A DNA stretch of 35,816 bases from an uncultured Granulosicoccaceae bacterium (GTDB lineage: Bacteria > Pseudomonadota > Gammaproteobacteria > Granulosicoccales > Granulosicoccaceae). Location of the stretch: NCBI GenBank assembly GCA_938045275.1, contig CALIMV010000227.1:1-35816 (forward strand). The letters are read 5' to 3'. Below the pieces are notes generated by a model. The model saw nothing but the letters and a program-made list of their open reading frames with translations. It ran no database searches and was not told where the DNA came from. Made by a program: the position numbers and the translations under genes. Below, in pieces: positions 10,998 through 32,712 of this stretch. How positions within the stretch are numbered: the first letter of the stretch is position 1; each line of letters starts with the position of its first letter.

Positions 10998-11008
10998 AGG
11001 TTTGATCA

Positions 11009-11824
11009 ATGAAAATAGTTTCGTTCAATACCAACAGTATTCGTCTGCGATTACACCAACTAGAAGCACTGCGTGATACCCACGCACCAGACATTATCGG
11101 TATTCAAGAAACCAAGGTTACCGACGAGGCTTTCCCGGTTGATGAATTAAAAGCCTTGGGCTACGAGTCTGTATTCTTTGGTCAGAAGACACACTACGGT
11201 GTTGCCATGCTGTCTAAAACGCCAATGAAAAATGTTCAGTATGGCTTCAAATCCGATGCCGAAGATGCGCAGCGACGACTCATCACAGCCACAGTAACAT
11301 CGAGTAAGGGCAACGATGTAACCGTTATCAATGGTTATTTTCCTCAAGGTGAAAATCGAAAACACGAAGTCAAATTCCCGGCCAAGGAAAAGTTCTATCA
11401 AGATTTGCAAACAAAACTTGAAACCGAACACAGTGCCGATGAACATTTAGCCGTTATTGGCGACTTCAATGTTGCACCGGTTGACAACGACATCGGCATT
11501 GGTGCCGACAACATCAAACGTTGGCTGCGCTCAGGTGCTACCTGTTTTTTACCAGAAGAGCGCGAGTGGCTACAGCGATTGATGGATTGGGGTCTGGACG
11601 ACAGCTACCGAGTTAAGTACCCGGACGTTGATGATTTGTATAGCTGGTTTGACTACCGCAGCAAAGGATTTGATCGCACCCCAAAACGGGGTATCCGAAT
11701 CGATCATGTACTAACGACATCTGTTATGACCAAATCGCTAATCGATTCAGGTATTGACTACGATATTCGCGCCATGGAAAAACCATCGGATCATTGCCCG
11801 GCCTGGTCTGAGTTCGACGTTTGA
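11009..11824 (+). CDS. xthA: exodeoxyribonuclease III / AP endonuclease
   Basis: The 271-residue enzyme removes 3' blocks and cuts at abasic sites in base excision repair. All catalytic elements of E. coli ExoIII (268 residues) are visible: IQETK with metal-binding Glu34, NGYFPQG with Tyr110, GDFNVAP with Asp152 and Asn154, RIDHVL with Asp232, and the closing KPSDHCP with Asp261-His262. The chosen ATG has an AAGG ribosome binding site and lies 11 bp after the rapA stop, consistent with cotranscription. It converges with the next gene: only three bases separate the two stop codons, and no terminator hairpin is evident between them. Confidence 0.97.
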   Translation: MKIVSFNTNSIRLRLHQLEALRDTHAPDIIGIQETKVTDEAFPVDELKALGYESVFFGQKTHYGVAMLSKTPMKNVQYGFKSDAEDAQRRLITATVTSSKGNDVTVINGYFPQGENRKHEVKFPAKEKFYQDLQTKLETEHSADEHLAVIGDFNVAPVDNDIGIGADNIKRWLRSGATCFLPEEREWLQRLMDWGLDDSYRVKYPDVDDLYSWFDYRSKGFDRTPKRGIRIDHVLTTSVMTKSLIDSGIDYDIRAMEKPSDHCPAWSEFDV

Positions 11825-11827
11825 CTC

Positions 11828-14203
11828 TCAGTCAGGCACTGCTTGAAGTTGCCGCGTACGGCGAGCAGCTTTGCGCAATAACAACATAAATGCAGCGAAT
11901 ACCAACATACCTAATGTAGGGTCATTGGCCGATGTAACCGAACAACCAAGTGCATTCTTGCCACCACCCGAAGTTGATGCACTGCCAGTAGCGCCAGATT
12001 GTGAAGTTCCGTCTCCAGCAGCCCCTGCAGTTAGTCCACCGGTATTTTCAGCGCTGCCGTTGCCAGCATCGTCAATCGCACCTGCAGTAACTGTTCCACT
12101 GGCAGTGCCATCGGCGTTTCCATTGATGCCAGTGTCGGCGCCGTCGGTTACTCCGGCGCTGGCGGATGCACGATTACCAACAAAGAACCTGCCCGCATCG
12201 CTGTACTTCAAGTTCCAGGATGCATAGTCCTCTGAATAAAATTCAACGCCTATTGTGTGCTCACCTATACCCGCTGCTTGTGGCCAACGAAACGAGATTG
12301 TCATGGTCTCACCAGCAGGAACCAAAAATACTTCTTCAAGTTCCAGGTGGGCAACCTGCAAGCCGTCGGGGTTATAAATATTGGCAAGTATTCTGAACCG
12401 ATCGTTACCCAGATCGTTTCTAACAAGCACATCGAATTCAACAGGAGAACTAATTTCGTGATTATCATCCGAAAAAATGATGTCCTGAACAGACGGTACT
12501 ATGGGTGTAACAAAATTCGGGTCGGGTACTTCAACAAACTGAAAGGTTGAGCGACTTACATTAGTACCAGCAGTTCTGACAGTTAGCGTCACTTTGTACT
12601 TGCCAAACTTTTCGTACTGGTGCTCTACCAGCGCTTTATTACCTGCGGTTGTGCCATCGCCAAAATCCCAACTGTAAACAAGATTTGCACCGGCAGGATG
12701 ATAAGAAGTAGACGCGTTTATGGTGAATATTGAAGGGTCAACCGGATCGGCAACGCTGAAAAAGCCTGGCACCGGCAATAACGGCGTTGAGCCGTCATCG
12801 TCATAACCAATACAACGAATTTCTGATACCGGTATGCCATCGACAATACCCGTTTCATAAGCCACATAACAGACTCGTCCATTTCTGTCCGTCATTAGAT
12901 CGGTCGCTTTTCCTGCTCCTGATAAAATGAGCGTAGACGATGGATTACCGACCGTATTTTCATTAAAACTGACCATTTCAATGGTGTCGAAAACATAGTC
13001 ACCAAAAACACAGCTGCCTTTAAAACTCTCCGGGTACTCATCGGCAGTGGGACGTGCACAACCTATAACAGCACCGGCAGGAATTTTGTTGCCATCGACA
13101 ACGATATCCACGTGGGCGTAGGTGTAGTCAGGCAGATTGTAGGTTCCAGGTTCCAACGGGCAACGTGCCAACACGTCGCCGTCTCGTCTTAACACTGTAT
13201 TCTCGTAGCCGTTGGCCACAGGACCGTTTTCAATACAGGGCCAACCTGCGTTGTCACCTGGATTGATACAGTAAATACCTTCTTTTGAATACCACCCAAC
13301 ATTACCCACGCAAAACTTTCCAGTTGCCGGGTCAAACGATCCGCTTTTCGGATTACGCATGCCCTTGGCAAAAACTTTTGATGCGTTATCCCATTTATTT
13401 CCAGTAAAAAATGGATTGTCTGCCGGACCCGATCCATCAGGATTTACGCGCAATATTTTGCCTGACAGGTGGTTGTTAATCTGCGCGTACAGCGCGTGAG
13501 GTTCGGGTTTGAAATAGCCTGCACCATCACCGGTACCAATGTAGATTTTCCCATCTGGACCGTACTGCACAAACGTAAACGAGTGAGCAGCAAAATCAAC
13601 CGCACCACAATCAGCACCAAGTGGTCGCATGTTGCAAGACGGGAATTGTTCGGTGGCCTTGAGCTTACCGATGATAACGTCTTCTTCAGTAGGCGCATCG
13701 GCAAAATACGAACGCGTTCCATCTGCGTCCACTTCCTCTCGTACAGTCAAGCGTGCAACACGGGCGTATTTTGGTTGCCCCTCATCAATTGGCGTAACGC
13801 CTGCATAATGTGTGTACGTAATAAGAATTTCTTTGACATCCGGAAATTGCGGATGCACGGCAATGCCACCCATACCGCTATCGATATAATCTGAAACCTG
13901 GTCGCTCATATCAAGCACGGCAATCGGCTGTGTGACGCCGTCGACAATAACGCGCACCCTGCCCGGTTTCTCCACAGCAAAAATCACGTCAACATTTTTA
14001 GCGAAAGCGAACGCTGATACCTTGGTAAGACCCACAAATTGCCTGTCTATGTACGGCTGTTCCAGATTGGCCACATCATTCACTGTGGACCCAATGGTTT
14101 CAATGTAAAAACCGGGTGTTTCGATCTTCGGAGCTGCGTTGGATACTGACATGTAAAGCAGAGTCATACAGGCGGTTGCCAGGACTTTGGAACTAAGGGT
14201 CAT
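11828..14203 (-). CDS. secreted PQQ-type sugar dehydrogenase-like protein with PKD domain and C-terminal sorting tag
   Basis: The 791-residue exported protein has a signal peptide (1-23, cleavage near SNA-AP). A six-bladed-propeller glucose/sorbosone dehydrogenase-like region follows (about 50-465), with GMGGIAVHPQF, FVQYGPDGKIYIGTGDG and AKGMRNPKSGSFDP. A PKD domain (about 474-560) has the signature YSWDFGDGTT, and a further beta-sandwich-like segment covers about 565-675. A low-complexity Gly/Ala/Thr/Ser linker spans 680-750. The end is a small cassette: GC pair, DPTL, hydrophobic helix (about 764-776), then RKAARRTR. This layout resembles GlyGly-, JDVT- and MYXO-type C-terminal sorting domains. 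Oxidation of an extracellular sugar is inferred from the family. Paired cysteines suggest disulfides. Confidence 0.85.
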   Translation of the reverse strand: MTLSSKVLATACMTLLYMSVSNAAPKIETPGFYIETIGSTVNDVANLEQPYIDRQFVGLTKVSAFAFAKNVDVIFAVEKPGRVRVIVDGVTQPIAVLDMSDQVSDYIDSGMGGIAVHPQFPDVKEILITYTHYAGVTPIDEGQPKYARVARLTVREEVDADGTRSYFADAPTEEDVIIGKLKATEQFPSCNMRPLGADCGAVDFAAHSFTFVQYGPDGKIYIGTGDGAGYFKPEPHALYAQINNHLSGKILRVNPDGSGPADNPFFTGNKWDNASKVFAKGMRNPKSGSFDPATGKFCVGNVGWYSKEGIYCINPGDNAGWPCIENGPVANGYENTVLRRDGDVLARCPLEPGTYNLPDYTYAHVDIVVDGNKIPAGAVIGCARPTADEYPESFKGSCVFGDYVFDTIEMVSFNENTVGNPSSTLILSGAGKATDLMTDRNGRVCYVAYETGIVDGIPVSEIRCIGYDDDGSTPLLPVPGFFSVADPVDPSIFTINASTSYHPAGANLVYSWDFGDGTTAGNKALVEHQYEKFGKYKVTLTVRTAGTNVSRSTFQFVEVPDPNFVTPIVPSVQDIIFSDDNHEISSPVEFDVLVRNDLGNDRFRILANIYNPDGLQVAHLELEEVFLVPAGETMTISFRWPQAAGIGEHTIGVEFYSEDYASWNLKYSDAGRFFVGNRASASAGVTDGADTGINGNADGTASGTVTAGAIDDAGNGSAENTGGLTAGAAGDGTSQSGATGSASTSGGGKNALGCSVTSANDPTLGMLVFAAFMLLLRKAARRTRQLQAVPD

Positions 14204-14635
14204 CGGGTCTATCTCTGGTGTTTAGGCACTGATTCAACAGTTTTTTTTTGGATATTAGTATCGTAGAACAGTTCGACAAAACTTGTGGGGTTCGAGACCG
14301 CAGATGACTGAATTTCGACGGTAAAAGCACAATATTTCTAAATATTTCACAATTTGTCAATATTTTTGAACCCGATCAATATTTTCTTCACCATCCTAGC
14401 CGTTATTACTAATTACACAGTAGTTTACTTTTCCCACACGCAATAAAAGTCCGGCAACTTTTCAGCCCTATTTCATCTGGGAATGCGAAAATGGGTTGGA
14501 GTAGCAGTCTCGATTTTCATTTTGCTGCACCGTAACTAAACTGTATTAATGGATTGGAAAATGTTGACTTTGGCCAATGAAGTGAGGGTTCCAAGCCTCA
14601 CGTCCAAAAGTAACAATAACAAGAGGAAAACGGCA
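14204..14635. promoter_or_regulatory. AT-rich divergent control region with repeated CAATATTT boxes
   Basis: This gene-free region separates the PKD sugar dehydrogenase from the GH16 gene and should carry both promoters. Its centre is markedly AT-rich. The octamer CAATATTT occurs exactly at 14330-14337, 14358-14365 and 14377-14384, with a one-base variant AAATATTT at 14340-14347. The spacings are 10, 18 and 19 bp, close to whole helical turns for the later pairs. A direct-repeat regulator binding site is possible. No assignable -10/-35 pair stands out. A nine-T run at 14242-14250 has no stem and is not a terminator. Confidence 0.35.
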
Positions 14636-16930
14636 TTGAACAAGCAACATGTTGCTCTATTAATCCGAAATTTTGTCATTCTGGTTACTTTCGCAGTCTT
14701 GCCATCTTTGGCCCACGCTCTGGAAGCGCCTCGCGATACCAGAGGAACCCTCATCACTTCAGATGTAATCAAGTGGGAATGGAACGGCGTCAACGGAGCA
14801 ACTCGCTATCAAGTCAACGTCAACGGATCTTTCGTCTCAATGACGAACGATAAGCATTTCTACAGTCGTAATCTCTCACCCGGTAACTACACATTCAACG
14901 TTCAGGCGGTCAACAACGAAGGTCGGTATTCCTCTCCGTCAGCAACATCCGCAGCGCTTACCGTGGGTGGCTCATCTGGTGACTCATCACAGAGCAATTC
15001 TAATTTGCCCGCCCCCAGAGACCCAAGAGGGACTGTGGTTCGTGCTGGCGAATCTAAATGGGAATGGGCACGGGTCGAAGGCGCCGGACAATACGAAGTG
15101 TTTGTTAACAACAACCCCGTCGGACTCACTACCGATTTATACGTGTACACACCTGGCTTAAGCGCTGGCGAACACACAATGAAAGTACGGGCTGTGGACA
15201 ACAATGGCGGTCGATCTGCCGACTCGGCGATCGCAAGAGTTACCATCGCTGGCGGCTCTGGTAGCAGCAATAACACAAGTAGCAACGCCTCAAGCGGCAA
15301 TGCGACCAGTCGCTCCAGTGACAATACCGGTTCCAACAATCTGGCAGCGCCAAGAGACCCAAGAGGTACTCGAGTACGCCCGGGTGAAATCAAATGGGAA
15401 TGGGCTCAGGTTTCTGGCGCCAGCGGTTATGAAGTTACCGTTAATGGCACCACTTACAACGCTTCACCACTGTTTCTGTATACGAAAAATCTGCCGATTG
15501 GTGAACACACCATGACCGTAAAAGCGCTCACCAGCGATGGACGAACGTCTCCTGCCTCCAACCAGGCCAAGGCGTCAACCTGGGAGAACGGACCTGGTGG
15601 CCCCATCGTTAATAATCAAAGTCAGAGTCAAAGTACCCAGAGCACTCAAAGTACGCAAAGCAACGAATCTGCTGACGTAGCTGTTAACACCCCTACCAAT
15701 GTTAGAGGAACGCAAATCAGCGATATAGAAATCAAATGGGAATGGCAGGAAGTGCCTGGTGCAACTGGCTATCAGCCTTATCTTAACGGATCGGCTGCAA
15801 ATATTACTCAAGACGGGCATCTGTACACAGGTAACTTGCCCAGTGGTGATCACTCGTTCAGTGTGGCAGCCGTAGATGCACAAGGTCGGCACACAGCCCA
15901 ATCTGTCAGTGCTGTTGTTACACTCAATGGCAACTTTTCCGATACCAGCAGCGGCGTTGCACCGCCTCCGCCAGCTAACGACAATGGTTTGATCGACCCA
16001 GCATCTTGGAACTACAGTGAAGTCAGCCAGAAGCCGGGCTACGAACTGGTGTTCAGTGATGAGTTCAACAGCAACGCACTAAACCGGAATCGTTGGAACA
16101 CCCAATTACGTTGGGACGGTTCGTACAACGGCGAACGGTACGAATACCGCTTAATTAATGGCGAGTCGCAGTTCTATGTAAACACCTATTCTGAAGATCC
16201 GGCACATTTGGACAAGGTTGCTTCGGTGTATAACCCGTTTGAATTCGATGGCAATCGACTGGCTATTCGCGCTATAAAAAATCCGCTAAAAAATCGCGAT
16301 ACGAAGCGACTGTACGGACCACTGGACGATATCTACCAACAACAACCCTTTCTGTCTGGCGCAATCTCCACGTACGATAAATTTAGCCAGAAGTACGGTT
16401 ACTACGAAGCACGAATTAAGATTCCATCGCATGAGGGCACTTTTCCAGCTTTCTGGTTACACCATCAAAGACGCGAATGGGAAGGTACGAATAAAACCGA
16501 AATCGACATTATGGAAAACCTTGGACACAGGACTGACTATGTGTACACCGCCGGGCATTACTACACCGGTGTCAGTGAAACCCATGGTGGTACAGCACAT
16601 GCGATTAAGCCATCTCCGCAAGGGCAAATTCATACGGGCACGTATTACAGCGACGACTATCACGTCTATGCCGCGGAATGGAGCCCTGGTGTAATTCGCT
16701 ATATGATCGATGGCCAACAAGTCAGTGAAATCAGAAACGGCGCATTCGACCACGAACCGTTGTATATGATCTTTAACCTGGCCGTTGGTGGCATCTGGTT
16801 TAATATGCCAACAAACGCAGGCGGCTCGGGTCGCTCATCAGACAATCGTTTCCCAACTCAGCAAGATATCGATACATGGGGAAATCCTGCTCTTGAAATT
16901 GACTGGGTTCGGGTTTACAAAGCTCAGTAG
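14636..16930 (+). CDS. secreted GH16 family beta-glucanase with four N-terminal repeats
   Basis: An exported glycoside hydrolase. The catalytic GH16 domain occupies the last 300 residues and has the family active-site motif EIDIMENLGH (nucleophile Glu, assisting Asp, acid/base Glu), plus HVYAAEWSPG and a closing EIDWVRVYKAQ. Before it are four FN3-like modules of about 80 residues, each with PR(D)xRGT, KWEW, GAxxYxVxVNG and a final Tyr-rich strand, joined by Ser/Asn/Gln/Thr linkers. The frame is open from an ATG at 14549, but I prefer TTG at 14636: AAGAGG lies at good distance before it, and it leaves a normal signal peptide ending SLAHA. The ATG form has a 30-residue polar extension and no ribosome binding site. 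Activity on laminarin-type or related beta-glucans is inferred; the exact substrate cannot be assigned. Confidence 0.9.
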   Translation: MNKQHVALLIRNFVILVTFAVLPSLAHALEAPRDTRGTLITSDVIKWEWNGVNGATRYQVNVNGSFVSMTNDKHFYSRNLSPGNYTFNVQAVNNEGRYSSPSATSAALTVGGSSGDSSQSNSNLPAPRDPRGTVVRAGESKWEWARVEGAGQYEVFVNNNPVGLTTDLYVYTPGLSAGEHTMKVRAVDNNGGRSADSAIARVTIAGGSGSSNNTSSNASSGNATSRSSDNTGSNNLAAPRDPRGTRVRPGEIKWEWAQVSGASGYEVTVNGTTYNASPLFLYTKNLPIGEHTMTVKALTSDGRTSPASNQAKASTWENGPGGPIVNNQSQSQSTQSTQSTQSNESADVAVNTPTNVRGTQISDIEIKWEWQEVPGATGYQPYLNGSAANITQDGHLYTGNLPSGDHSFSVAAVDAQGRHTAQSVSAVVTLNGNFSDTSSGVAPPPPANDNGLIDPASWNYSEVSQKPGYELVFSDEFNSNALNRNRWNTQLRWDGSYNGERYEYRLINGESQFYVNTYSEDPAHLDKVASVYNPFEFDGNRLAIRAIKNPLKNRDTKRLYGPLDDIYQQQPFLSGAISTYDKFSQKYGYYEARIKIPSHEGTFPAFWLHHQRREWEGTNKTEIDIMENLGHRTDYVYTAGHYYTGVSETHGGTAHAIKPSPQGQIHTGTYYSDDYHVYAAEWSPGVIRYMIDGQQVSEIRNGAFDHEPLYMIFNLAVGGIWFNMPTNAGGSGRSSDNRFPTQQDIDTWGNPALEIDWVRVYKAQ

Positions 16931-16953
16931 ATCTGAGAATAAATTAAGACTCG

Positions 16954-16999
16954 AAAAGGGGTCGGTGGGATTACTTAAATCCTTCCGGCCCTTTTTTTT
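16954..16999 (+). terminator. rho-independent terminator of the GH16 gene
   Basis: AAAAGGG (16954-16960) pairs with CCCTTTT (16989-16995). Inner pairing comes from GTCGG with CCGGC-type bases and from GGATT with AATCC around a small loop. Eight T residues follow (16992-16999). It lies 24 bp after the GH16 stop. Confidence 0.85.
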
Positions 17000-17059
17000 G
17001 GTTGTCGACAAAACGTCATTGTCTCAATCGCTTGATGGTGTCTGTATCACCTCTACACG

Positions 17060-18067
17060 TTAGCGTCTGGTTCCATTTTTTTTGGCAGCTACCTTCGTCT
17101 TCCTTTTTGATTTCTTTTTAGCCATCGTCGGCCTTTCAACGTTTGCATCTGGTACCTTAATTTTTTTCCCGATTGTTGTGGTAAGAAGGTCTTTTAGTCG
17201 GCGAGTTTCCTGCGCCTTCACTTGAAGTCTCTCTGATCTTGCTCTAAGTATCATTTCTTCGCCAGTGAAAGGGTTCAGACCTTTACGCTCGGGCTTGCCC
17301 TCTCTGAAGGATGCGCGCAATTTCATGATTGTCAGTAAACATGTTTTGTTCTTCTTCTCAAGATCGTCGATAAGGCATTCTTCGTATGCTTGTAGGATAG
17401 TCTGCACATCAAATTCCGAATGACCCGTTTTCTCAGCAACTAGTTGAATATGTTTCTTATTACTACTACTGAGTGAACCTGAGAAACCAAGGTCGCTATA
17501 TCGTTCGGGTTTGTCATCTTTGGATAGTTCGTTATCTGAGGCTGGACCTGGAGTTGTTGATTCTATAGCTTTTGGAATGCTAGAAAACCTGTCTTGTGAA
17601 CGTTTCGAAAGTGCTGTTAGCGATCGCTTAACACGACCCTCAAGTTTCTTGAATATCTCATCCAGCTCTTGTAGATTCTTTGTTTTCTTCAGGCGCTTTT
17701 GCAATACTTCGTGAGCTGCCTCGTCTTCCTTTTTCATCAGCTTGATGGTTGGTGCTAGCGTCTTGTTGCTTGTGACAAGTGCATCGCGATCATCAGCTGT
17801 GAATAGAAAACCACATATTAGAGATTGAGTGTAGTAATTTAGGTGTTCATCATCATCTATATATTCAGAAGACAAATCACATATCGCTTGAAAAGCTTCT
17901 TTTCTGACGGCAAAACCACTTTCAAATTTTTTTAACTCAGCATGTTTAATGTTGCGGCTAGCTACCGTCATGTAGTGTGAAAGGACACGGTGATCACCTG
18001 CACGCCAGCTCATTTGCCAAATCTCAATAGAAGCAATTGTTCCTAGAACATAGCGACATTTCTCCAT
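17060..18067 (-). CDS. HU/IHF-like DNA-binding domain protein with novel N-terminal region
   Basis: The 335-residue protein is not recognised as a whole. Residues about 201-297 look like the HU/IHF fold: an opening KKHIQLVAEKTGHSEFDVQ helix pair, a middle beta segment, then the arm/return signature KGLNPFTGEEMILRARSERL and a last helix RRLKDLL. HU proteins have RNPxTGEEI at the same place. The tail 316-335 is strongly basic (AKKKSKRKTK), like histone H1-type tails. Residues 1-160 are alpha-helical and Lys/Glu-rich with no known motif; 160-200 is a polar linker. The ATG at 18067 is used; an alternative ATG at residue 19 (18013) is possible. A DNA-structuring or nucleoid role is inferred from the HU domain. 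It stands alone between carbohydrate genes and has a more AT- and Lys-rich composition than its neighbours. Confidence 0.75.
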   Translation of the reverse strand: MEKCRYVLGTIASIEIWQMSWRAGDHRVLSHYMTVASRNIKHAELKKFESGFAVRKEAFQAICDLSSEYIDDDEHLNYYTQSLICGFLFTADDRDALVTSNKTLAPTIKLMKKEDEAAHEVLQKRLKKTKNLQELDEIFKKLEGRVKRSLTALSKRSQDRFSSIPKAIESTTPGPASDNELSKDDKPERYSDLGFSGSLSSSNKKHIQLVAEKTGHSEFDVQTILQAYEECLIDDLEKKNKTCLLTIMKLRASFREGKPERKGLNPFTGEEMILRARSERLQVKAQETRRLKDLLTTTIGKKIKVPDANVERPTMAKKKSKRKTKVAAKKNGTRR

Positions 18068-18194
18068 TCCGCTTGAATGGATAACACTGAGAATATATGT
18101 GCGATGTAGGCTCTTTGTATTTGCGCTGCTTCAGTTTAGCCGTGATTTGGGTATTCAGTACAAGGCTGCTTTTGCACTTGCTCGTTTTCCTAAA

Positions 18195-20480
18195 CTACAA
18201 AGAATCGATCCAATCGCCGATTATTTTAACGGCTGCCTCATCAACAACATGCGTTGACAATGGCGGCATGCGGGCATCGTCGAGTGCACGCATGCGATGC
18301 CATAACACGCTGCGTTCTTTACTGCCTCTGGCAATAATGCGTGCGTCCACAATGTCGAAGCTACCGGCTTGCGGGACAACATCTATGGCATTCATGACAC
18401 CGTTGTCGGCATCGACTCGAAAATTCATGGTGGTAGGCGCTGGGCCTTGCGGTTGATGACAGTTGCTGCAATTAACATCGAGGTACGCACGCGCCCGTTG
18501 CTCAATAGTCGCCGATTCATCAGTTAACGGTGGCAGCACTTTGTACTGATCGACCGCGCCAATATCGCTATTGAACAATCCAATTGCATTTAAAGTTTGC
18601 AACTGATTGGCCGTAGTGGCCCCATAAGCAAAGTTCGCATTCAACTGCCCAGTCTCCAAGCCCAGCAGGAAGGTGGATGCATCGTTGTGGCATGCACTGC
18701 AGTCGGCCTGACTTGGGTAATCGTATTGCTGCACACGTGTGCTGCCATCGTTCAGACTCACCGTTAATGATTCTGTTTCGCGCCCCAGCAGCAAATTAGC
18801 TTCCGTTTCAGCCGCGTTCCAGCGATAGGTAAAGCCTTGCCAGCCCTGATTCGTGTTGTACATAACACGAGTTTCCAGACGTCGTCGGCTGTCGGGTGCG
18901 TTTTGCACTCGCTCAAATTCAAAGTGTTTTATCGATACTGACCCTACAGGAAACGTCCAGTCATCGGCAGTAAAGTCTATCTTGGCATTGTCAGGCACAC
19001 CAATCCAACGGCGCTTGACGGTGCCATCAGACCAGAAGGGGTGGCTCGGTTCGTATTCAATAAAACCACTGACTGGCGTTAACGATGCCAGATCACTGAA
19101 TAACCCTGTTGCCGATAGCGTGGCTGGAAACGCTATATTTCCTGTGCTCTCAACAAATTTATACAATCCGTTGTAACGCGATACCACAAGCAGTTCGCCA
19201 TCCTTCGTTTCACCAAAGCTGGTTGGCGAACCTACATTGCCCACAACATCAACTGAGGTAACCGAATCTCCTGCAAGCGTTAGCGCTGTTACCGTGCCGG
19301 CAGTAAAATCTGAGTAAATGTATCGGCCTTGCAAAGAACTCACGGCTCCGCGGTAAACATAGCCACCAATAACAGCCAATCCTAAATCATGGGTGTACTC
19401 ATGAATGGGCGGTATAGCCACACCATCGGGTAACGGCTCCTGGCCGGCTCTGAGGCCTGCACCCTCGTATACCCGCCAACCGTAGTTACCACCGGCGGTG
19501 ACTTTGTTGATTTCTTCAATATCGTTCTGTCCAACATCGCCAACCCACAAGTCACCTGTTTGACGATCAAAGGAAAAGCGCCAAGGGTTGCGAAAACCAT
19601 AAGCGTAAATTTCTGTACGTACATTGGCTTCACCAACAAACGGATTGGAAGGCGGTACCACATAGCCCACACCATCGGGCGTGTTGACGTCAATTCGCAA
19701 TATGCTGCCCAGCAACGTATTGCGATTCTGGCCATTGTTGTTTGGATCGCCACCATCGCCACCATCACCAAGCCCGAAGTACAAATAATTGTCTGGTCCA
19801 AACGCCAGCATGCCGCCGTTGTGGGCAAAGAACGGCTGTTCTACTTGCAGCACAATTTTTGCACTAGTCGGCTCGAGTTTATCCGTTGCGCTATCCCAAC
19901 GCAGTCGTGTAACGACTGAATCCCATGTGCCTACCTGGGTGTGGTAGATGTAAACAAACCGGTTTTCAGTAAAGCGTGGGTCGAACGCAAGACCAAGTAA
20001 TCCTTGCTCGCCACTGTCCTTTGCTACATTGCCAGAGTAATCGAGAATCTCTGTGGCAGTGGTAACAGCTGGGTTGTCGTCAAATACTTTGATCTTGCCA
20101 AATTGCTCCACTACCACCAGGCGGTTTTCACCCGGAACGTCGTCTACAAACAAAGCTTCCTGGAAGGTCAGGTTTGGATAGGCGTTAACTAATTCATAAT
20201 TGCCCTGCCTCACTCCATCGATTGGCAGATTAAAAGCTGCCAGTGATGCCCGTGTACTCAAGCCAACAGTGTCACCCGTACTGGTGGTACCGGCGCTTGT
20301 GTCATTGGAGCCTGTTGCGGTGGTCGTTCCACCGTTGTCCGATGCGCTTACTAAGGCTGTGCCCGTATCGTCGCCGGTATCGGTTGCTTGTGGCACACTT
20401 GCGCTGTCGCTGCTGTCACAAGATGCGATAAACAGGCACAGCGCGAATAAAATTGAAGAGTTGTGAGAGAGATTTGGCAT
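18195..20480 (-). CDS. PQQ-type sugar dehydrogenase fused to a dihaem c-type cytochrome domain, lipoprotein
   Basis: The 761-residue predicted lipoprotein has the lipobox FIAS-C at Cys21 and a long Asp/Thr/Ser/Gly tether to about residue 75. Residues about 95-445 are a glucose/sorbosone (soluble aldose) dehydrogenase propeller: GEQGLLGLAFDPRF, FFAHNGGMLAFGPDNYLYFG, GDGGDGGDPNNNGQN, YGFRNPWRFSFD and GGNYGW. Residues about 450-761 match the SO2930/HNE_0200-type dihaem cytochrome region, with haem motifs CSACH (594-598) and CSNCH (671-675) and a late RMPPL that may supply an axial Met. The design would pass electrons from sugar oxidation straight to haem on the cell envelope. PQQ dependence is inferred from the family. 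It has its own 5' region with a LacI-like operator. Confidence 0.9.
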   Translation of the reverse strand: MPNLSHNSSILFALCLFIASCDSSDSASVPQATDTGDDTGTALVSASDNGGTTTATGSNDTSAGTTSTGDTVGLSTRASLAAFNLPIDGVRQGNYELVNAYPNLTFQEALFVDDVPGENRLVVVEQFGKIKVFDDNPAVTTATEILDYSGNVAKDSGEQGLLGLAFDPRFTENRFVYIYHTQVGTWDSVVTRLRWDSATDKLEPTSAKIVLQVEQPFFAHNGGMLAFGPDNYLYFGLGDGGDGGDPNNNGQNRNTLLGSILRIDVNTPDGVGYVVPPSNPFVGEANVRTEIYAYGFRNPWRFSFDRQTGDLWVGDVGQNDIEEINKVTAGGNYGWRVYEGAGLRAGQEPLPDGVAIPPIHEYTHDLGLAVIGGYVYRGAVSSLQGRYIYSDFTAGTVTALTLAGDSVTSVDVVGNVGSPTSFGETKDGELLVVSRYNGLYKFVESTGNIAFPATLSATGLFSDLASLTPVSGFIEYEPSHPFWSDGTVKRRWIGVPDNAKIDFTADDWTFPVGSVSIKHFEFERVQNAPDSRRRLETRVMYNTNQGWQGFTYRWNAAETEANLLLGRETESLTVSLNDGSTRVQQYDYPSQADCSACHNDASTFLLGLETGQLNANFAYGATTANQLQTLNAIGLFNSDIGAVDQYKVLPPLTDESATIEQRARAYLDVNCSNCHQPQGPAPTTMNFRVDADNGVMNAIDVVPQAGSFDIVDARIIARGSKERSVLWHRMRALDDARMPPLSTHVVDEAAVKIIGDWIDSL

Positions 20481-20843
20481 AAAAAATCAGTTTTCTATTG
20501 CTGGTTATTGTTCGAGCGCAGTACAGTGCATTATTTGATACGAATATAGAGCGACGGCGGTTTTTACGTGGGCTAAATATCGTTAATTGTGACGTATTTA
20601 CGTATTTGTAACCGCTTACGATTGCATTACCACATTAGTTTACAGCTTTACGCAAAATGCGGCCGGCGGCCATAGAACAGGCTGAAGCTGGCCTTCGGCT
20701 ACTTATCGGCATTTAGCGTTCCGGTAGCCAAAGACGTGGGCACTATTTCGGCTTTGACTTGGCAAATCTACGTAGCCGGACATGACTAGAACCAACGCTA
20801 ACATTGCCCAATTTGTTACCTTTCCGAACCAACAAGCGATCAG
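20481..20843. other. 363-bp gene-free region between NYN gene and sugar dehydrogenase
   Basis: No plausible reading frame was found. The right-hand part holds a hairpin GCTGAAG-CTGGC-CTTCGGC (20681-20699, one G-T pair) and a looser pair GGCTAC/GTAGCC. It lies downstream of nothing on the plus strand and downstream of the NYN stop on the minus strand, so it may end that transcript, although no T-run follows. The left-hand part is the control region of the dehydrogenase. A tandem ACGTATTT pair lies at 20592-20607, next to the operator-like site at 20608-20619. Confidence 0.5.
20608..20619. promoter_or_regulatory. LacI-family-like operator upstream of the dihaem sugar dehydrogenase
   Basis: GTAACCGCTTAC fits the common LacI/GalR half-site pattern GTAAnCGnTTAC with the central CG. 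It sits 128 bp upstream of the dehydrogenase start codon. Sugar-responsive repressors of this family often use such sites. No LacI-type gene is in the window, so this rests on the motif alone. Confidence 0.4.
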
Positions 20844-21329
20844 TTAGTTATTTGGCGATAACAGCAATGCCTTATCGATTGAGTGAAATTCACTCGCTTC
20901 GTTTATCAGCGAATTAGCCGTCAATTTAGCCACACCGTATACTTCCACTCGTTTTTGTTTACCAACTCGAATTTTATTGGCAAGCAGATCAAAATCACCA
21001 TCGCCAGATACTAAAACGATGATGTCAGCGTGGTCTGCGTAATCCATCATGTCAATGGTGATTCCGACATCCCAGTCGCCTTTGGCAGAACCATCAGAGC
21101 GCTGAATAAACGGTTTTAGTTTTACCTCAAACCCAATGGCTCTGAGGATATTTTGAAACTCTTTTTGTTTTTGATCGCCTCTGTCGATTGCATAGGCAAA
21201 GGCCTTAACAACTTCTCTGTTATTGGTGGCTTGATACCAGAACTTGTTATAGTCAAAGTGCTTTCCAAAGGTTTGTCTTGTTGTGTAGTAAACGTTTTGG
21301 ACATCAACAAAAATGGCAACTTTTTTCAT
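20844..21329 (-). CDS. NYN domain protein (LabA/DUF88 family), predicted PIN-like nuclease
   Basis: The 161-residue single NYN domain is a PIN-like metal-dependent nuclease fold. The acidic positions of the family are all visible: VAIFVDVQN with Asp9, KGDWDVGITIDMMDYA with Asp85, Asp87 and Asp93, and VLVSGDGDFD with Asp110, Asp112 and Asp114. The length is normal for stand-alone members. The ATG at 21329 is chosen because the family begins MKKVAIFVD; the TTG two codons upstream is less likely. A 92-bp relic of a second copy of its codons 19-48 lies at 22138-22229. RNA cleavage is inferred from the family. The cellular target is unknown. Its neighbours on the same strand are a lipoprotein gene and an AAA ATPase gene. 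Confidence 0.9.
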   Translation of the reverse strand: MKKVAIFVDVQNVYYTTRQTFGKHFDYNKFWYQATNNREVVKAFAYAIDRGDQKQKEFQNILRAIGFEVKLKPFIQRSDGSAKGDWDVGITIDMMDYADHADIIVLVSGDGDFDLLANKIRVGKQKRVEVYGVAKLTANSLINEASEFHSIDKALLLSPNN

Positions 21330-21399
21330 ATGCAACTAGCGTTATTATTAGCGTGTTGTACTTATCACGATTTATTTGGCTAAGGTATTTTCAAACCAT

Positions 21400-22101
21400 T
21401 TACAAGACAGAAACATCTTTTAAATAACTTACCACTTCCTCAGCTATTGTTCCCAGTGCTTTTGCCGTTGCCTCTAATTCTGCCTTTTTTATTGTTTCAG
21501 AAAAATTATTATCATCGGCCGTTTTTACAGCTGCAAAACTTTCGGTACTCGCGATAGATTTGACAATAATTCCAGACCTTATATCGAGCAAAATAGCTTC
21601 GACCGAACAATAAGACTTTGTTTCATCATCTGAGAGGATTCTGTATTTCTGGTACGAATTGCACAAAGTACGATAACCAAAAAGCAAGTCAGCTTGAAAT
21701 CGTGCAGCCGCTTCTCGCAGTATAGGAACAGATTTATCCGCAGGTATTAACATAGCTGGCAGAATTGACGCATCGTAGACTCTTTCAGAAGACCGCAATT
21801 TGTCAATTAACTGCGTAACAATCGAATCGGTGAGTTGGGTGAAGTCATCTGAATAAAATCGCCATCGACTCTCCCCGTTTAGTTTCAATATCGCTATCCG
21901 GCTAGACTTAGGCAGGGTTACGCGATAATTGAGCAAAGCCCGAATTTTTTCGTCGTTATCCGCAAGCGTTATTTCATTAAATAGGCCGACTTGCTCATTC
22001 GTTGAAGCGTCTTCGTAGTAACTACTGGGCCTCTCTACAGAGCTAACGGTCGCGCAAGCTTGTAAGAAAATCGTAATGACAACAATCAATAGTAATTTCA
22101 T
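21400..22101 (-). CDS. predicted lipoprotein of unknown function
   Basis: The 233-residue product has the signal sequence MKLLLIVVITIFLQAC, so Cys16 should be lipidated. The start is well supported: ATG at 22101 has the ribosome binding site AAGGA six bases upstream. A longer frame to 22209 only reads, out of frame, through the NYN relic. The mature part has alternating helix and strand character (RIAILKLNGES, VYDASILPAMLIP, FQADLLFGYRTLC, VEAILLDIRSG) and ends in a helix. This resembles the general layout of several small outer-membrane lipoprotein families whose domain assembles around secretion or stress systems. I could not place it in a named family. Two cysteines (in TLCNSY and SYCSVE) could form a disulfide. 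Confidence 0.8.
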   Translation of the reverse strand: MKLLLIVVITIFLQACATVSSVERPSSYYEDASTNEQVGLFNEITLADNDEKIRALLNYRVTLPKSSRIAILKLNGESRWRFYSDDFTQLTDSIVTQLIDKLRSSERVYDASILPAMLIPADKSVPILREAAARFQADLLFGYRTLCNSYQKYRILSDDETKSYCSVEAILLDIRSGIIVKSIASTESFAAVKTADDNNFSETIKKAELEATAKALGTIAEEVVSYLKDVSVL

Positions 22102-22137
22102 ATTTTTCCTTAACTGGCTAGAAGCTCGTTTAAGTGC

Positions 22138-22229
22138 CAATCGCATGGGCAAAGGCCTTGACAAGCTCCCTGTTGTTCGTGCCTTGAGACCGGAACTTGT
22201 TATAGTCAAAGTGCTTTACACAGGTTTGT
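22138..22229 (-). pseudogene. relic of a second NYN-domain gene
   Basis: This 92-bp stretch aligns without gaps to 21185-21276 inside the NYN gene (constant offset 953) at about 80% identity, ending abruptly at both sides. Read in the NYN frame on the minus strand, it gives QTCVKHFDYNKF, then TNNRELVKAFAHAI, against QTFGKHFDYNKF and TNNREVVKAFAYAI in the intact gene. It then meets a stop. Many differences are third-base changes, so the copy diverged as a coding sequence before it was cut down. It lies between the AAA ATPase stop and the lipoprotein start. Confidence 0.85.
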
Positions 22230-22238
22230 ATTAATTCC

Positions 22239-23003
22239 TCACTCACTATCCGACGCTATCAGGTTATTTAACATCCCTTCTCTGTTATTCATGAATTGGC
22301 GAGTAATTCGAACATGCTCAGTCTCTTCATATTCTGTTTGTGCCAGCCCGGAATCCTCTAACACATAAATGAGCGCTTCTGGGTACGCCATTATGATCGG
22401 TGAATGGGTCGCTACAATAAACTGACAGCCTTGTTTAACCAGTTCATCCATGCGAGCCAGCATAGCGAGCTGCCGTGTTGGCGACAAAGCGGCCTCAGGC
22501 TCATCTAAAATATACAACGATGATCCTGAAAAACGGTTTAGCAACAGCGCCATAAACGATTCGCCATGTGATTGTTCATGTAAAGACCGATCACCATAGT
22601 AGCTGATTATTTTTGGCCCAGCGGGATAGATGTCCTCTTCGTCCAGGTTTTCGATTTCTGTAGCAACATTGAAAAAGCTCTCTGCTCTTAGAAAAAACCC
22701 GTCTTTGGGTTTTTTGATACCCCTGGACAAGCGCAAATACTGATCGAGCACAGAGTGTGATTTTCGTGTGTTGAATCCAAAGTTCTTTGAACCACCTTCC
22801 GGATTAAAACCTGCAGCGACAGCAATAGCTTCCAGCAATGTTGACTTTCCTGAACCATTCTCGCCAATAAAAAAAGTGACTGCGGGGTGCAGTGCTACGC
22901 TGTGCAGTTGCTTTATAGCTGGCAGGGAAAATGGGTATTCAGCAAAGTTGTCTATTTTTTCGCGTTTAAGTTTTACATCGATAATAAACTGTTCAGACAA
23001 CAT
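22239..23003 (-). CDS. AAA/ABC-type ATPase (AAA_21-like, predicted ATP-binding protein)
   Basis: The 254-residue cytoplasmic ATPase has the SMC/ABC-like arrangement but no membrane domain: Walker A FFIGENGSGKST (45-55), an ABC-type signature SHGESF (145-150), Walker B LYILDEPEAALSP (163-175) and an H-loop ATHSP with His200. The N-terminal strand set before Walker A (LKREKIDNFAEYPFSLPAI) is typical of the AAA_21/AAA_23 group, whose members occur alone as predicted ATP-binding proteins or as parts of OLD/Ppl-like defence and repair systems. No partner effector domain is fused. Downstream on the same strand are a NYN relic, a lipoprotein and an intact NYN nuclease. A shared function with them is possible but not shown. 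Confidence 0.88.
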   Translation of the reverse strand: MLSEQFIIDVKLKREKIDNFAEYPFSLPAIKQLHSVALHPAVTFFIGENGSGKSTLLEAIAVAAGFNPEGGSKNFGFNTRKSHSVLDQYLRLSRGIKKPKDGFFLRAESFFNVATEIENLDEEDIYPAGPKIISYYGDRSLHEQSHGESFMALLLNRFSGSSLYILDEPEAALSPTRQLAMLARMDELVKQGCQFIVATHSPIIMAYPEALIYVLEDSGLAQTEYEETEHVRITRQFMNNREGMLNNLIASDSE

Positions 23004-23084
23004 AGCTATGTTCGTTTGTTGTGAGCGTTGCGTTTTCGCGATAAGAATACTACTGACTCATGCAGTTATACAGAAGTGGCTTAT

Positions 23085-23756
23085 TTATTTACCCAATGGT
23101 TCAAATACACCGTTCTTTTCCTGCGCTTTTTTATAAGCTGGACGTGCCCGCATACGGCTCAGGTAACTTTGTGCATTCGGGTAGCGAGCATCCATTCCAC
23201 AACGCACCTCTGCCACCTCAAGACAATACCCCATCGCTATATCGGCAACACTGAACTGTTCGCCAGCGAACCAGGTTGATTCGGACAGGTCGGATTCGAT
23301 CTGGGCAAGGATATTGTTGAGCTTCGGTTGTAAAAAAGATTTGTTGGTTTGGGCGTCGACCATTTTCATTGCCGGTTTTAAAGGCCAAGGCACCCGACCC
23401 TTGAGGCGACTGAATACCAACTGCATATACATTAACGGCACAATTGAGCCCTGTGCTGCGTGAAGCCAATACAAATAACGAACACGTTCGGCCGAACCCG
23501 GCTGTGGTACAAGGCCTTTATTTCCATGTTTATCGAGAATGTATTGAAATATGGCATTGGATTCCGGTAACACCACATCGTCGTCTGTGATGATCGGTGA
23601 CGTACCCACACGATGCAGTTTTCTGAGTTCAGGCGGGGCGAGTAACGTCTTTTTATCGCGTTTGTAGTGTTGGATTAAGTAGTCAACGCCCAGCTCTTCG
23701 AGAAGCCATAAAATTCGAATAGATTGGGATTTCTCCAAATGATGCACTGTAATCAT
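23085..23756 (-). CDS. glutathione S-transferase family protein
   Basis: The 223-residue cytoplasmic GST has an N-terminal thioredoxin-like domain (about 1-80) with KSQSIRILWLLEELG, then VGTSPIITDDDVVLPESNAI, which gives the cis-Pro and the ESxAI glutathione-gamma-glutamyl contact. The helical C-terminal domain follows, with the conserved FSVADIAMGY capping segment. The catalytic residue near the N-terminus is probably Ser10 or Ser12. The substrate cannot be predicted. Its ATG overlaps by four bases (ATGA) the stop codon of a short upstream frame that is a Nudix N-terminal relic. This suggests it once was, or still is, translated by coupling. Confidence 0.9.
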   Translation of the reverse strand: MITVHHLEKSQSIRILWLLEELGVDYLIQHYKRDKKTLLAPPELRKLHRVGTSPIITDDDVVLPESNAIFQYILDKHGNKGLVPQPGSAERVRYLYWLHAAQGSIVPLMYMQLVFSRLKGRVPWPLKPAMKMVDAQTNKSFLQPKLNNILAQIESDLSESTWFAGEQFSVADIAMGYCLEVAEVRCGMDARYPNAQSYLSRMRARPAYKKAQEKNGVFEPLGK

Positions 23757-23866
23757 CTGACATTGTCCTTATCGTCGTACACTTCTGCGGCGAGCCAACG
23801 TCCTTTGTGGAAGGCCAATCCAATAACTTTAGCGGTAATCGCTTGAACTGGACGCCAAACGGTCAC
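23753..23866 (-). pseudogene. N-terminal relic of a Nudix hydrolase gene
   Basis: A short open frame reads VTVWRPVQAITAKVIGLA, then FHKGRWLAAEVYDDKDNVR, then TGA. This is the strand-turn-strand opening of Nudix hydrolases of the form RPxxAIxVKxIGLAxRxGRLLAAEVxDDxGxV, which continue GVRPLGGxxEFGE. Here the frame stops exactly before the PLGG and Nudix-box part, and the GST start codon takes its place. It therefore looks like a gene cut off by a deletion fusion. The family call is from pattern memory, not a search. A 5' GTG (23866) is possible, but there is no ribosome binding site. Confidence 0.55.
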
Positions 23867-23904
23867 GGTTTTGCAGCGTTAATGATAGGCGTCAGGATAG
23901 CAGA

Positions 23905-23924
23905 GGGCGATTTCAACATCGCCC
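23905..23924. other. GGGCGAT hairpin between the BMP gene and GST
   Basis: GGGCGAT (23905-23911), six-base loop, ATCGCCC (23918-23924) form a perfect seven-pair hairpin about 36 bp after the BMP stop codon on the minus strand. No T-run follows, so it is a weak terminator candidate or a 3'-end stabilising structure for the importer transcript. Confidence 0.5.
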
Positions 23925-23960
23925 ACTGTTAATTTATTAAAGGTTTACGCAAGGAGTCTA

Positions 23961-25064
23961 TTACTTAGGCAATGCGCCCTGCACTCCTTCAACATAGTAG
24001 TCCATACCGAGTAGCACATCGTCTCCCAGCACGGCACCTTCAGCGACCACTTCTTCGCCTGCCTGATTCTTGATTGGACCCTGGAAAGGATGAAATGAGC
24101 CATCAACAATGCCTTCCTTGATGGCATCTGCTGCAGCTTTCACATCATCGGGTACATTTGCACCATACTCAGCAAAAGCAACCATACCGCTGTCGATACC
24201 ATCCCAAACATCTTGTGATTCCCAATTGCCATCCATTACAGCCCGGGTGCGTTCAACATAGTACTCGTTCCAGTCGTCAATAATGGACGTGAGCTGAGCT
24301 TCTGGTGCAAAAGCACTCATGTCTGAGGCTTGTCCAAAACCCATAACACCACGTTCCTGAGCTGCCTGCAAAGGCGCAGGAGAATCGGTATGTTGAGTGA
24401 TGATGTCGGCGCCTTGATCAATGAGCGTTTTCGCTGCATCACTTTCCTTTCCTGGGTCATACCAGCTATTGACCCACACAACACGAACTTCGGCCTCAGG
24501 GTTAACTTTGCGCATGGCAATCGTAAAGGCGTTAATGCCGCGTACTACCTCTGGGATAGGAAAGGACCCTATATAACCGATAACATTAGACTTGGTCATC
24601 ATGCCAGCCATAGTACCGAGTACGGCACGGCCTTCATAGAATCGCGCGGAGTAAGTAGACACGTTATCGGCGCGTTTATACCCAGTTGCATGTTCAAATT
24701 TAACGTCAGGGAAAGCCTTCGCAACCTTGTTAGTTGGGTTCATGTAACCAAATGACGTTGTGAAAATTAAATCGTGCCCGTCGCTGGCAAGTTTACGTAT
24801 AACACGTTCAGCATCGGCGCCTTCTGAAACACTTTCTACAAATGTGGTTTCAACTTTGTCTCCAAACTCGGCTTCTATCGCCAGGCGTCCTACATCGTGT
24901 CGGTAAGTCCAGCCATGATCGCCAATTGGCCCTACGTAAACGAAGCCAACTTTTACCGGGTCGGCCGCGAGTACTGACGCACTGCTGAAAGATAACAAAG
25001 CAGCCACAAGCGCTAACGACACTTTTCTAAGGCTTGCTGCTTTAAAAACTGAGCTTACAAACAT
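23961..25064 (-). CDS. BMP-family ABC transporter substrate-binding protein (purine/nucleoside type)
   Basis: The 367-residue periplasmic binding protein belongs to the basic-membrane-protein (PnrA/BmpA) family, which captures purine nucleosides or nucleobases for an ABC importer. It has a normal signal peptide ending SASVLA, then VKVGFVYVGPIGDHGWTYRH, the family opening in which the Asp-His-Gly-Trp loop lies at the ligand site. Later family motifs are IFTTSFGYM, GYIGSFPIPEVVRGINAF, VNSWYDPGKE and GADIITQHTDS. The start at 25064 is chosen because GGAG stands six bases before it. The frame stays open upstream through a 12-bp repeat, which would add 27 Lys/Val residues if a GTG there were used. 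It is the last gene of the importer operon and is separated from the permeases by 115 bp. Confidence 0.93.
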   Translation of the reverse strand: MFVSSVFKAASLRKVSLALVAALLSFSSASVLAADPVKVGFVYVGPIGDHGWTYRHDVGRLAIEAEFGDKVETTFVESVSEGADAERVIRKLASDGHDLIFTTSFGYMNPTNKVAKAFPDVKFEHATGYKRADNVSTYSARFYEGRAVLGTMAGMMTKSNVIGYIGSFPIPEVVRGINAFTIAMRKVNPEAEVRVVWVNSWYDPGKESDAAKTLIDQGADIITQHTDSPAPLQAAQERGVMGFGQASDMSAFAPEAQLTSIIDDWNEYYVERTRAVMDGNWESQDVWDGIDSGMVAFAEYGANVPDDVKAAADAIKEGIVDGSFHPFQGPIKNQAGEEVVAEGAVLGDDVLLGMDYYVEGVQGALPK

Positions 25065-25148
25065 CTTTTTCTCCACTATTTTCACGACAATTTTCACGAT
25101 TTTTTTCACGACTTTTTTCACCACTTTTTTCACCACTTTTTTCACGAC
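25065..25148 (-). repeat. seven-unit imperfect 12-bp tandem repeat in the BMP gene leader
   Basis: On the minus strand seven consecutive 12-mers of the form GTSGTGAAAAAA run directly into the ATG at 25064. The first four are nearly identical (GTCGTGAAAAAA or GTGGTGAAAAAA) and the last three are degenerate. The last unit supplies the GGAG ribosome binding site. The unit is in frame with the gene and has no stop codons, so it could also be translated from an internal GTG as a Val-Lys-Lys-rich extension. Copy number could vary by slippage and change leader length without shifting frame. Confidence 0.9.
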
Positions 25149-25158
25149 TATGTTGACT

Positions 25159-31293: not shown

Positions 31294-31947
31294 TCATTGC
31301 AAGTGGTAGCGAACTCCGAGCCCGAATGTCATTTCATCAATTAGATCGATTCCAGCGTAAAATTCACCAAAACTCGTGTCAGTAAACACACCACCGCCAA
31401 AGCCAAGCTCAGTATCGTCGTAGTCATCTTCGAAATCGAACTTGTGAATACCAAAATTCGCATACCAGCGCAGGTTACTTTCGCCAATCTTCTGACCACT
31501 GAACAAACCCTCAATGCTCAGTACATTGCCATCGGCTTCACGATTCGTATCAGATTCGTCCAGTGTTCCTGTGTGGTATGACACTTTTACGGCAAAATCA
31601 TTTGCCTTGGTAACACCCTTTACTTGATAGAAAAATCCAGCGCCGTAAGCCAATCCGTCAAAATCTTCGATTTCAGCCTGCACAAGATCAACGTAGAGCA
31701 TGACTTCATCCGATGTACGAACGTTGAAGCGCGCACCGAAACTCTGATAAGAAGCTTCGCCTATGTCTCCTGTGAGAACGCCAGCTTCAACCGATGAACT
31801 CGGTAAGGAGGCGATGTTTGCAGAACGACCCGTTGGAAATCCGAAGTACTCTGCATGTACTTGTGCATTACTGAACAGCGTAATAACGGTTACGATAAAA
31901 AGTGAGCCTATGCGCAGTAAACGTTTAGTGATATTAAATTTGTGCAT
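31294..31947 (-). CDS. outer-membrane beta-barrel protein, GRSAN-box family (copy 2)
   Basis: The 217-residue protein has a long signal peptide (cleavage likely near VHA-EY) followed by amphipathic beta strands. It is paralogous to the product of 32044-32712. Shared landmarks are FPTGRSANIASLPSSSVEAG near the mature N-terminus, FGARFNVRTS, DGLAYGAGFFYQVKG, DFAVKVSYHTGTLDES, LSIEGLFSGQKIGE, WYANFGIHKFD and SFGEFYAGIDLID, closing with FGLGVRYHLQ. The aromatic/polar C-terminus fits outer-membrane insertion. The ribosome binding site GAGG lies five bases before the ATG. Function is unknown, and no porin or transporter motif is visible. It lies downstream of its paralogue on the same strand with a strong hairpin between. 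Confidence 0.8.
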   Translation of the reverse strand: MHKFNITKRLLRIGSLFIVTVITLFSNAQVHAEYFGFPTGRSANIASLPSSSVEAGVLTGDIGEASYQSFGARFNVRTSDEVMLYVDLVQAEIEDFDGLAYGAGFFYQVKGVTKANDFAVKVSYHTGTLDESDTNREADGNVLSIEGLFSGQKIGESNLRWYANFGIHKFDFEDDYDDTELGFGGGVFTDTSFGEFYAGIDLIDEMTFGLGVRYHLQ

Positions 31948-31975
31948 ATTGACCTCTGTGTCTCTGCTAGGTTGT

Positions 31976-32008
31976 GTAAGGTGTTGCGCATTTCATGCAA
32001 CACCTTAC
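31976..32008. other. perfect 12-bp stem-loop between the two barrel genes
   Basis: GTAAGGTGTTGC (31976-31987), nine-base loop, GCAACACCTTAC (31997-32008) form a perfect 12-pair stem in the 96-bp gap between the paralogous barrel genes. It ends about 28 bases before the ATG of the downstream gene. No T-run follows on the minus strand, so it is not a standard terminator. It may stabilise the upstream message, dampen expression of the downstream copy, or be an operator. Confidence 0.75.
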
Positions 32009-32043
32009 GACCTGTAGTAATACAACCAATAAAAAGTGTCGGT

Positions 32044-32712
32044 TTAAAGATTGTAACGAACACCTGCTACGAACAGTGCACCGTCAATAAAGTCAATGCC
32101 TGCGAAAAATTCACCGAACGACAAAGCGCCGGTAATGCCACCACCAAACAAGAATTCGTTGTTGCTATCGCTAGCAGTTCCACTGCCAACAGTGCCAAAA
32201 CCTGGAATAAAGGTGGCTGCACTGAATTCGCTATCGATGATGTGCATACCAGCATTGGCGTACCAGCCAAAGTCAGTTTCACCTAATTGATCACCACTGA
32301 TGAGGGCCTCGATGCTTATTTCAGTGTAGTCGATGTCAACACCACTGGCGTCAAGTGTTCCAAGGTGATAAGCACCTTTCACTGCAAAATCAGTATTCTC
32401 CAGCAAGTTAACGTTGCGCAATTGATAGAACGCACCAAATCCGTATACCAGGCCGTCAGCGTCGCCACCGTTATTGTCTAGTGTAAGCATACCTACATCG
32501 CCAAATACCATTAGATCTGTGGACGCCTTGAAATTCACACGAGCCCCGAATAGCGTTCCATCTCCATCAAGATTAACTCCACCCTCAACAGACATGTCTG
32601 CCATGTTATCCATGTTCGCGCTACGTCCGTTAGCCAGACCTAAAATATCGGCCATGGCAGATTGCGCAACCAGGCTAAATACAACTACACACAAAAAACC
32701 AAACTTCTTCAT
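32044..32712 (-). CDS. outer-membrane beta-barrel protein, GRSAN-box family (copy 1)
   Basis: The 222-residue protein has a signal peptide ending AMA-DI and a barrel-like body. It shares the order of motifs with the product of 31294-31947: LANGRSANMDNMADMSVEGG, FGARVNFKAS, DGLVYGFGAFYQLRN, DFAVKGAYHLGTLDAS, ISIEALISGDQLGE, WYANAGMHIID, SFGEFFAGIDFID and a C-terminal FVAGVRYNL. The AGGAAA ribosome binding site lies before the ATG, which supports the start. A longer Gly/Thr loop near residues 165-185 (VGSGTASDSNNEF) is absent from the paralogue. It is the first gene of the pair and carries the promoter region. The cellular role is unknown. Confidence 0.82.
   Translation of the reverse strand: MKKFGFLCVVVFSLVAQSAMADILGLANGRSANMDNMADMSVEGGVNLDGDGTLFGARVNFKASTDLMVFGDVGMLTLDNNGGDADGLVYGFGAFYQLRNVNLLENTDFAVKGAYHLGTLDASGVDIDYTEISIEALISGDQLGETDFGWYANAGMHIIDSEFSAATFIPGFGTVGSGTASDSNNEFLFGGGITGALSFGEFFAGIDFIDGALFVAGVRYNL

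What the first reader, a model, noticed from the sequence alone, without database searches (positions are those of the whole stretch)
22138..22229. Coding relic of a second NYN nuclease gene next to the intact one
A 92-bp ungapped match (about 80%) to the NYN gene, in the same orientation and offset by 953 bp, retains the NYN frame and shows many third-position changes. So a diverged paralogue once stood here and was cut down to codons matching 19-48 of the intact gene. Intact copy, lipoprotein, relic and ATPase in a row suggest a site where NYN-containing units turn over.
Basis: seen in the sequence. Interest (0 to 1): 0.65.

Follow-up and report, generated by a model that had tools for sequence, protein, structure and literature searches.

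The report
Dead scrap of duplicated NYN gene
Between two intact genes lies a 93-base leftover of a second copy of a neighbouring NYN-domain (predicted ribonuclease) gene; it is an ordinary, decayed gene fragment in a part of the chromosome where gene content changes often between species.

Summary
The repeat is real. Window 22138/22140-22232 (- strand) matches NYN gene codons 18/19-48/49 ungapped at 84-85% (E 1e-23 against the whole 5.7 Mb genome), in the NYN frame. It is a remnant of a second NYN copy. No other relative (at most 75%) is as close to it as the intact neighbour. It carries replacements at residues invariant in 42 intact relatives (W31R, Y46H), while at codon 32 it keeps the common serine where the intact gene has a unique tyrosine, so it is not a recent copy of the present gene. 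Nothing else of the second gene survives. No sister genome holds the relic or a second NYN gene here. One close relative has the ATPase directly followed by GSDH, without relic, lipoprotein or NYN. The site is a gene-content-variable island between conserved anchors, 31 bp to 12 kb wide across the genus. That supports gene turnover in general, not NYN-specific units. Ordinary: about 240-300 such intergenic remnants per genome are reported elsewhere.

The parts
22138..22232 (-). NYN relic: codons 18/19-48/49 of a second NYN copy, no start and nothing after residue 49
20844..21329 (-). intact NYN-domain protein (161 aa, Pfam PF01936, E 1e-44; solved relative 2qip, VPA0982)
21400..22101 (-). putative lipoprotein (233 aa, lipobox LQAC read by eye), no Pfam family; its only close relative found (61%) lies in a cassette array with attC-like sites in another genus
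22239..23003 (-). AAA_21/AAA_15-type ATPase (254 aa), intact C-terminus; the relic begins about 10 bases after its stop
18195..20480 (-). GSDH/PQQ-type dehydrogenase with cytochrome part; directly follows the ATPase in relative G010
20538..20626 (-). upstream region of the GSDH gene, conserved with G010; marks the inner edge of the extra segment (about 20627-22232)
22130..22246 (-). 38-aa reading frame (GTG start overlapping the ATPase end) that contains the relic; no evidence that it is used

Best explanation
The segment is a dead remnant of a second copy of the NYN gene. A stretch of roughly 1.6 kb (relic, lipoprotein gene, intact NYN gene and trailing non-coding DNA) lies between the ATPase and the GSDH gene in this lineage (shown by comparison with G010). 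At some time two related NYN genes stood on either side of the lipoprotein gene, by duplication or by arrival of a close relative of the gene (inferred). One was redundant, lost both ends by deletion, and the rest is drifting by mutation (inferred; the dead state is indicated by changes at invariant residues and by the missing ends). The remnant now only fills the spacer between the ATPase stop and the lipoprotein start.
For: Ungapped 93-98 nt match, unique in the genome. Closest of all NYN sequences found is the window's own gene: 85%, against at most 75% for others; the tree groups them, best in the topology test. Six of the relic's residues are never seen in 42 homologues, two of them at invariant sites (W31R, Y46H); no intact homologue has more than one change at an otherwise invariant site, and the one with most novel residues has five. 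At codon 32 the relic has the common S where the intact gene has Y, so it is not a fresh copy. No other NYN fragments in neighbouring spacers. No relic in 26 congeneric genomes. G010 lacks the whole segment. NYN genes are patchy and almost always single.
Against: No intermediate or full second copy was found in any genome, so the full-length stage is inferred. The tree is weak: on the 93 relic bases alone the relic pairs with G004's gene, and alternatives to relic + window gene are not rejected (AU 0.06-0.37). The share of replacements that fall on invariant residues is by itself what chance gives (P 0.6), which fits drift but is not a positive proof.
Confidence: 0.66

Rival explanations
1. 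Only a fragment was ever copied here: a short piece of the NYN gene was pasted into the spacer during faulty repair or template switching, and has drifted since.
For: Only codons 18-49 are present, with sharp loss of similarity on both sides and no other NYN pieces nearby. Differences are compatible with no constraint from the start (P 0.08-0.18).
Against: Slight deficit of replacements (8 seen, 10.5 expected; dN 0.115, dS 0.548), as expected if both copies were under selection for a time; not significant.
Confidence: 0.26
2. The segment is still functional, as a 38-aa peptide starting at a GTG that overlaps the end of the ATPase gene, or as a structured leader of the lipoprotein mRNA.
For: The frame is open; the 137-nt spacer folds slightly better than shuffles (z -1.9, 8 of 200).
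Against: An open frame is expected in half of neutral cases (P(stop) 0.49); invariant residues are changed; no Rfam match; not kept in any relative.
Confidence: 0.05
3. A variant of the best explanation: the relic is the older resident NYN gene and the intact gene is the newcomer, or both came by separate transfers from near relatives.
For: In G005 and G017 a NYN gene lies in the same island, just after the BMP operon; the relic-only tree pairs the relic with G004.
Against: The relic is most similar to the window gene; relic and window gene share residues such as the NN at codons 36-37 that most relatives lack.
Confidence: 0.2

Closest known systems
Intergenic gene remnants (pseudogene fragments) as catalogued by Pseudofinder (PMC9336565)
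   Same: Protein-level similarity to a real gene in a spacer without a usable gene; 238 found in Shewanella MR-1 and 305 in Sodalis praecaptivus.
   Different: Here the parent-like intact gene stands one gene away, which is why it could be seen by eye.
NYN domain proteins, PF01936 / VPA0982-type (PDB 2qip)
   Same: The intact neighbour is a full-length member; the relic covers residues 18-49 of the same protein.
   Different: The relic lacks the start and everything after residue 49, so it cannot make a NYN fold.
Chromosomal integron cassette arrays
   Same: The closest relative of the lipoprotein lies in an array with attC-like sites; a NYN relative in the same genus lies near such an array.
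   Different: No attC-like site was found on the coding strand of the window segment.

Membership tests
decayed gene remnant (pseudogene fragment) | significant similarity to a functional gene | tested here: met
   E 1.4e-23 DNA, 7e-8 protein
decayed gene remnant (pseudogene fragment) | truncated, cannot encode the full product | tested here: met
   32 of 161 codons; no further pieces nearby
decayed gene remnant (pseudogene fragment) | loss of constraint | tested here: inconclusive
   six novel residues, two at invariant sites; position bias and replacement deficit not significant
once full-length second NYN gene at this site | full-length counterpart at the same place in relatives | tested here: not met
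   none in 26 congeneric genomes; only one genome of this species is held, so absence is weak evidence
in-lineage paralogue of the intact NYN gene | sister to the intact gene in a tree | tested here: inconclusive
   best topology, alternatives not rejected
integron gene cassette | attC site after the gene | tested here: not met
   pattern absent on the coding strand of the window; present repeatedly in L181 and L183

The most novel reading that the evidence does not exclude
The spacer is a repeated landing place for NYN-carrying segments: single genes drawn from integron-like reservoirs (the lipoprotein, perhaps NYN) enter between the BMP operon and its conserved neighbour, and homologous NYN copies help integration and later excision, leaving scraps.
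Probability: 0.05. Interest if true: 0.4.

Novelty: new member of a known kind. Interest (0 to 1): 0.13.

Why it matters
By itself little: it documents one gene-decay event. It does point to a gene-content-variable island in this genus, with conserved anchors, where gain and loss of genes can be followed in detail.

Tried and rejected
Integron cassette origin of the window segment: no attC-like pairs on its coding strand; a first attC detector was too strict to find even the real arrays and was replaced by a pattern check. Repeated or mobile DNA after the NYN gene: single copy in the genome. NYN on phages: none. RNA family: none. Further NYN pieces in spacers: none. Relic in the spacer of G010: none, scores at shuffle level.

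Full report
Observation. The repeat is present at the stated place. The repeat search gives 21182-21279 against 22135-22232, 98 nt, ungapped, 84% identical, offset 953, same orientation. Searched against the whole genome (5.75 Mb in 499 contigs, 82% complete), the intact NYN piece has exactly one second match, 22140-22232, 85%, E 1.4e-23; the NYN protein likewise hits only itself and residues 18-49 at the relic, 72% identical, E 7e-8, without a stop. This is not chance.

Anatomy. On the minus strand the order is ATPase (22239-23003), relic, lipoprotein (21400-22101), intact NYN (20844-21329), GSDH dehydrogenase (18195-20480). The ATPase is intact to its C-terminus when compared with relatives. 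The match starts about 10 bases after the ATPase stop and ends about 35 bases before the lipoprotein start. No other part of a second NYN gene was found in any of the spacers tested.

What it descends from. I compared the relic with the NYN genes found in relatives and in public genomes. The window's own gene is by far the closest (85%); others reach at most 75%. A tree on the full alignment pairs the relic with the window gene (85% support); on the 93 relic bases alone the relic pairs with the gene of G004, with the window gene next to them. The topology test favours relic + window gene but rejects no alternative. So the relic is a near relative of the intact gene, and whether it is an in-lineage duplicate or a separately acquired close relative is open.

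State of decay. Of eight replaced codons, six carry residues never seen in 42 intact homologues; two of them (W31, Y46) are at positions invariant in all. D49 is also unchanged in the 26 homologues. At codon 32 the relic keeps serine, common in relatives, whereas the window gene has a tyrosine seen in no other homologue; hence the two copies have both changed since they parted. A period as a working paralogue is plausible but not demonstrated. The open frame means little, as half of neutral simulations stay open.

Sister genomes. None of 26 other genomes of the genus contains the relic, and none has more than one NYN match. In G010 the ATPase is followed directly, after 154 bp, by the GSDH gene, whose upstream region aligns with window 20538-20626. 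So the segment from about 20627 to about 22232 is extra in the window lineage, or lost in G010. More broadly, the BMP-type binding-protein gene at 23961-25064 and the gene pair at 8211-11824 are neighbours in twelve other genomes, with anything from 31 bp to several kb of changing genes between them; in the window they are 12 kb apart. In G005 and G017 a NYN gene also sits in this interval, one small gene after the BMP gene. This is a gene-content-variable island. It supports turnover at this place, but of many unrelated genes.

Origin of the neighbours. The lipoprotein has no good relative in the 57-genome near set (best is a weak partial hit) and one good relative among 369 genomes of the class (61%, G385). 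There it lies in a series of small co-oriented genes separated by attC-like sites (TAACAA...GGCGTTA). A NYN relative in the same genus as G385 lies near a similar array, but without such a site of its own. In the window no such site is seen on the coding strand, so a cassette origin stays a lead.

Verdict. A dead fragment of a second NYN copy, most likely the rest of a once larger gene, in an island of variable content. Intergenic remnants of this sort are common: 238 in Shewanella MR-1 and 305 in Sodalis praecaptivus were reported by Pseudofinder (PMC9336565). Ordinary, correctly spotted.

Taxon. The NYN contig of G022 has the same length as a public record named Granulosicoccaceae (48,104 bases), so the window belongs to that family; the genus is probably Granulosicoccus (inference from the genome size and single contig of G023).

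Noticed in passing
window 11824-23961: Gene-content-variable island between a BMP-type transport operon and a conserved convergent gene pair; 31 bp to 12 kb wide among 13 genomes of the genus.
   Followed up: partly
L181 1212-4702: The relative of the window lipoprotein in another genus lies in a run of small genes with attC-like sites, downstream of a tRNA-Leu.
   Followed up: partly
L183 7193-9036: attC-like array running to a contig end, about 1.5 kb after a NYN gene 78% identical to the window's.
   Followed up: no
window 25066-25157: 12-base tandem repeat (TTTTTTCACCAC-like), about seven copies, just upstream of the BMP-type binding protein start.
   Followed up: no
window 20640-20740: Inverted repeat of about 12 bp in the non-coding stretch after the NYN gene; folding of the stretch is no better than shuffles.
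   Followed up: partly
window 31294-32712: Two adjacent genes on the minus strand (31294-31947, 32044-32712) share several repeats of 70-77%, so they are probably tandem paralogues.
   Followed up: no
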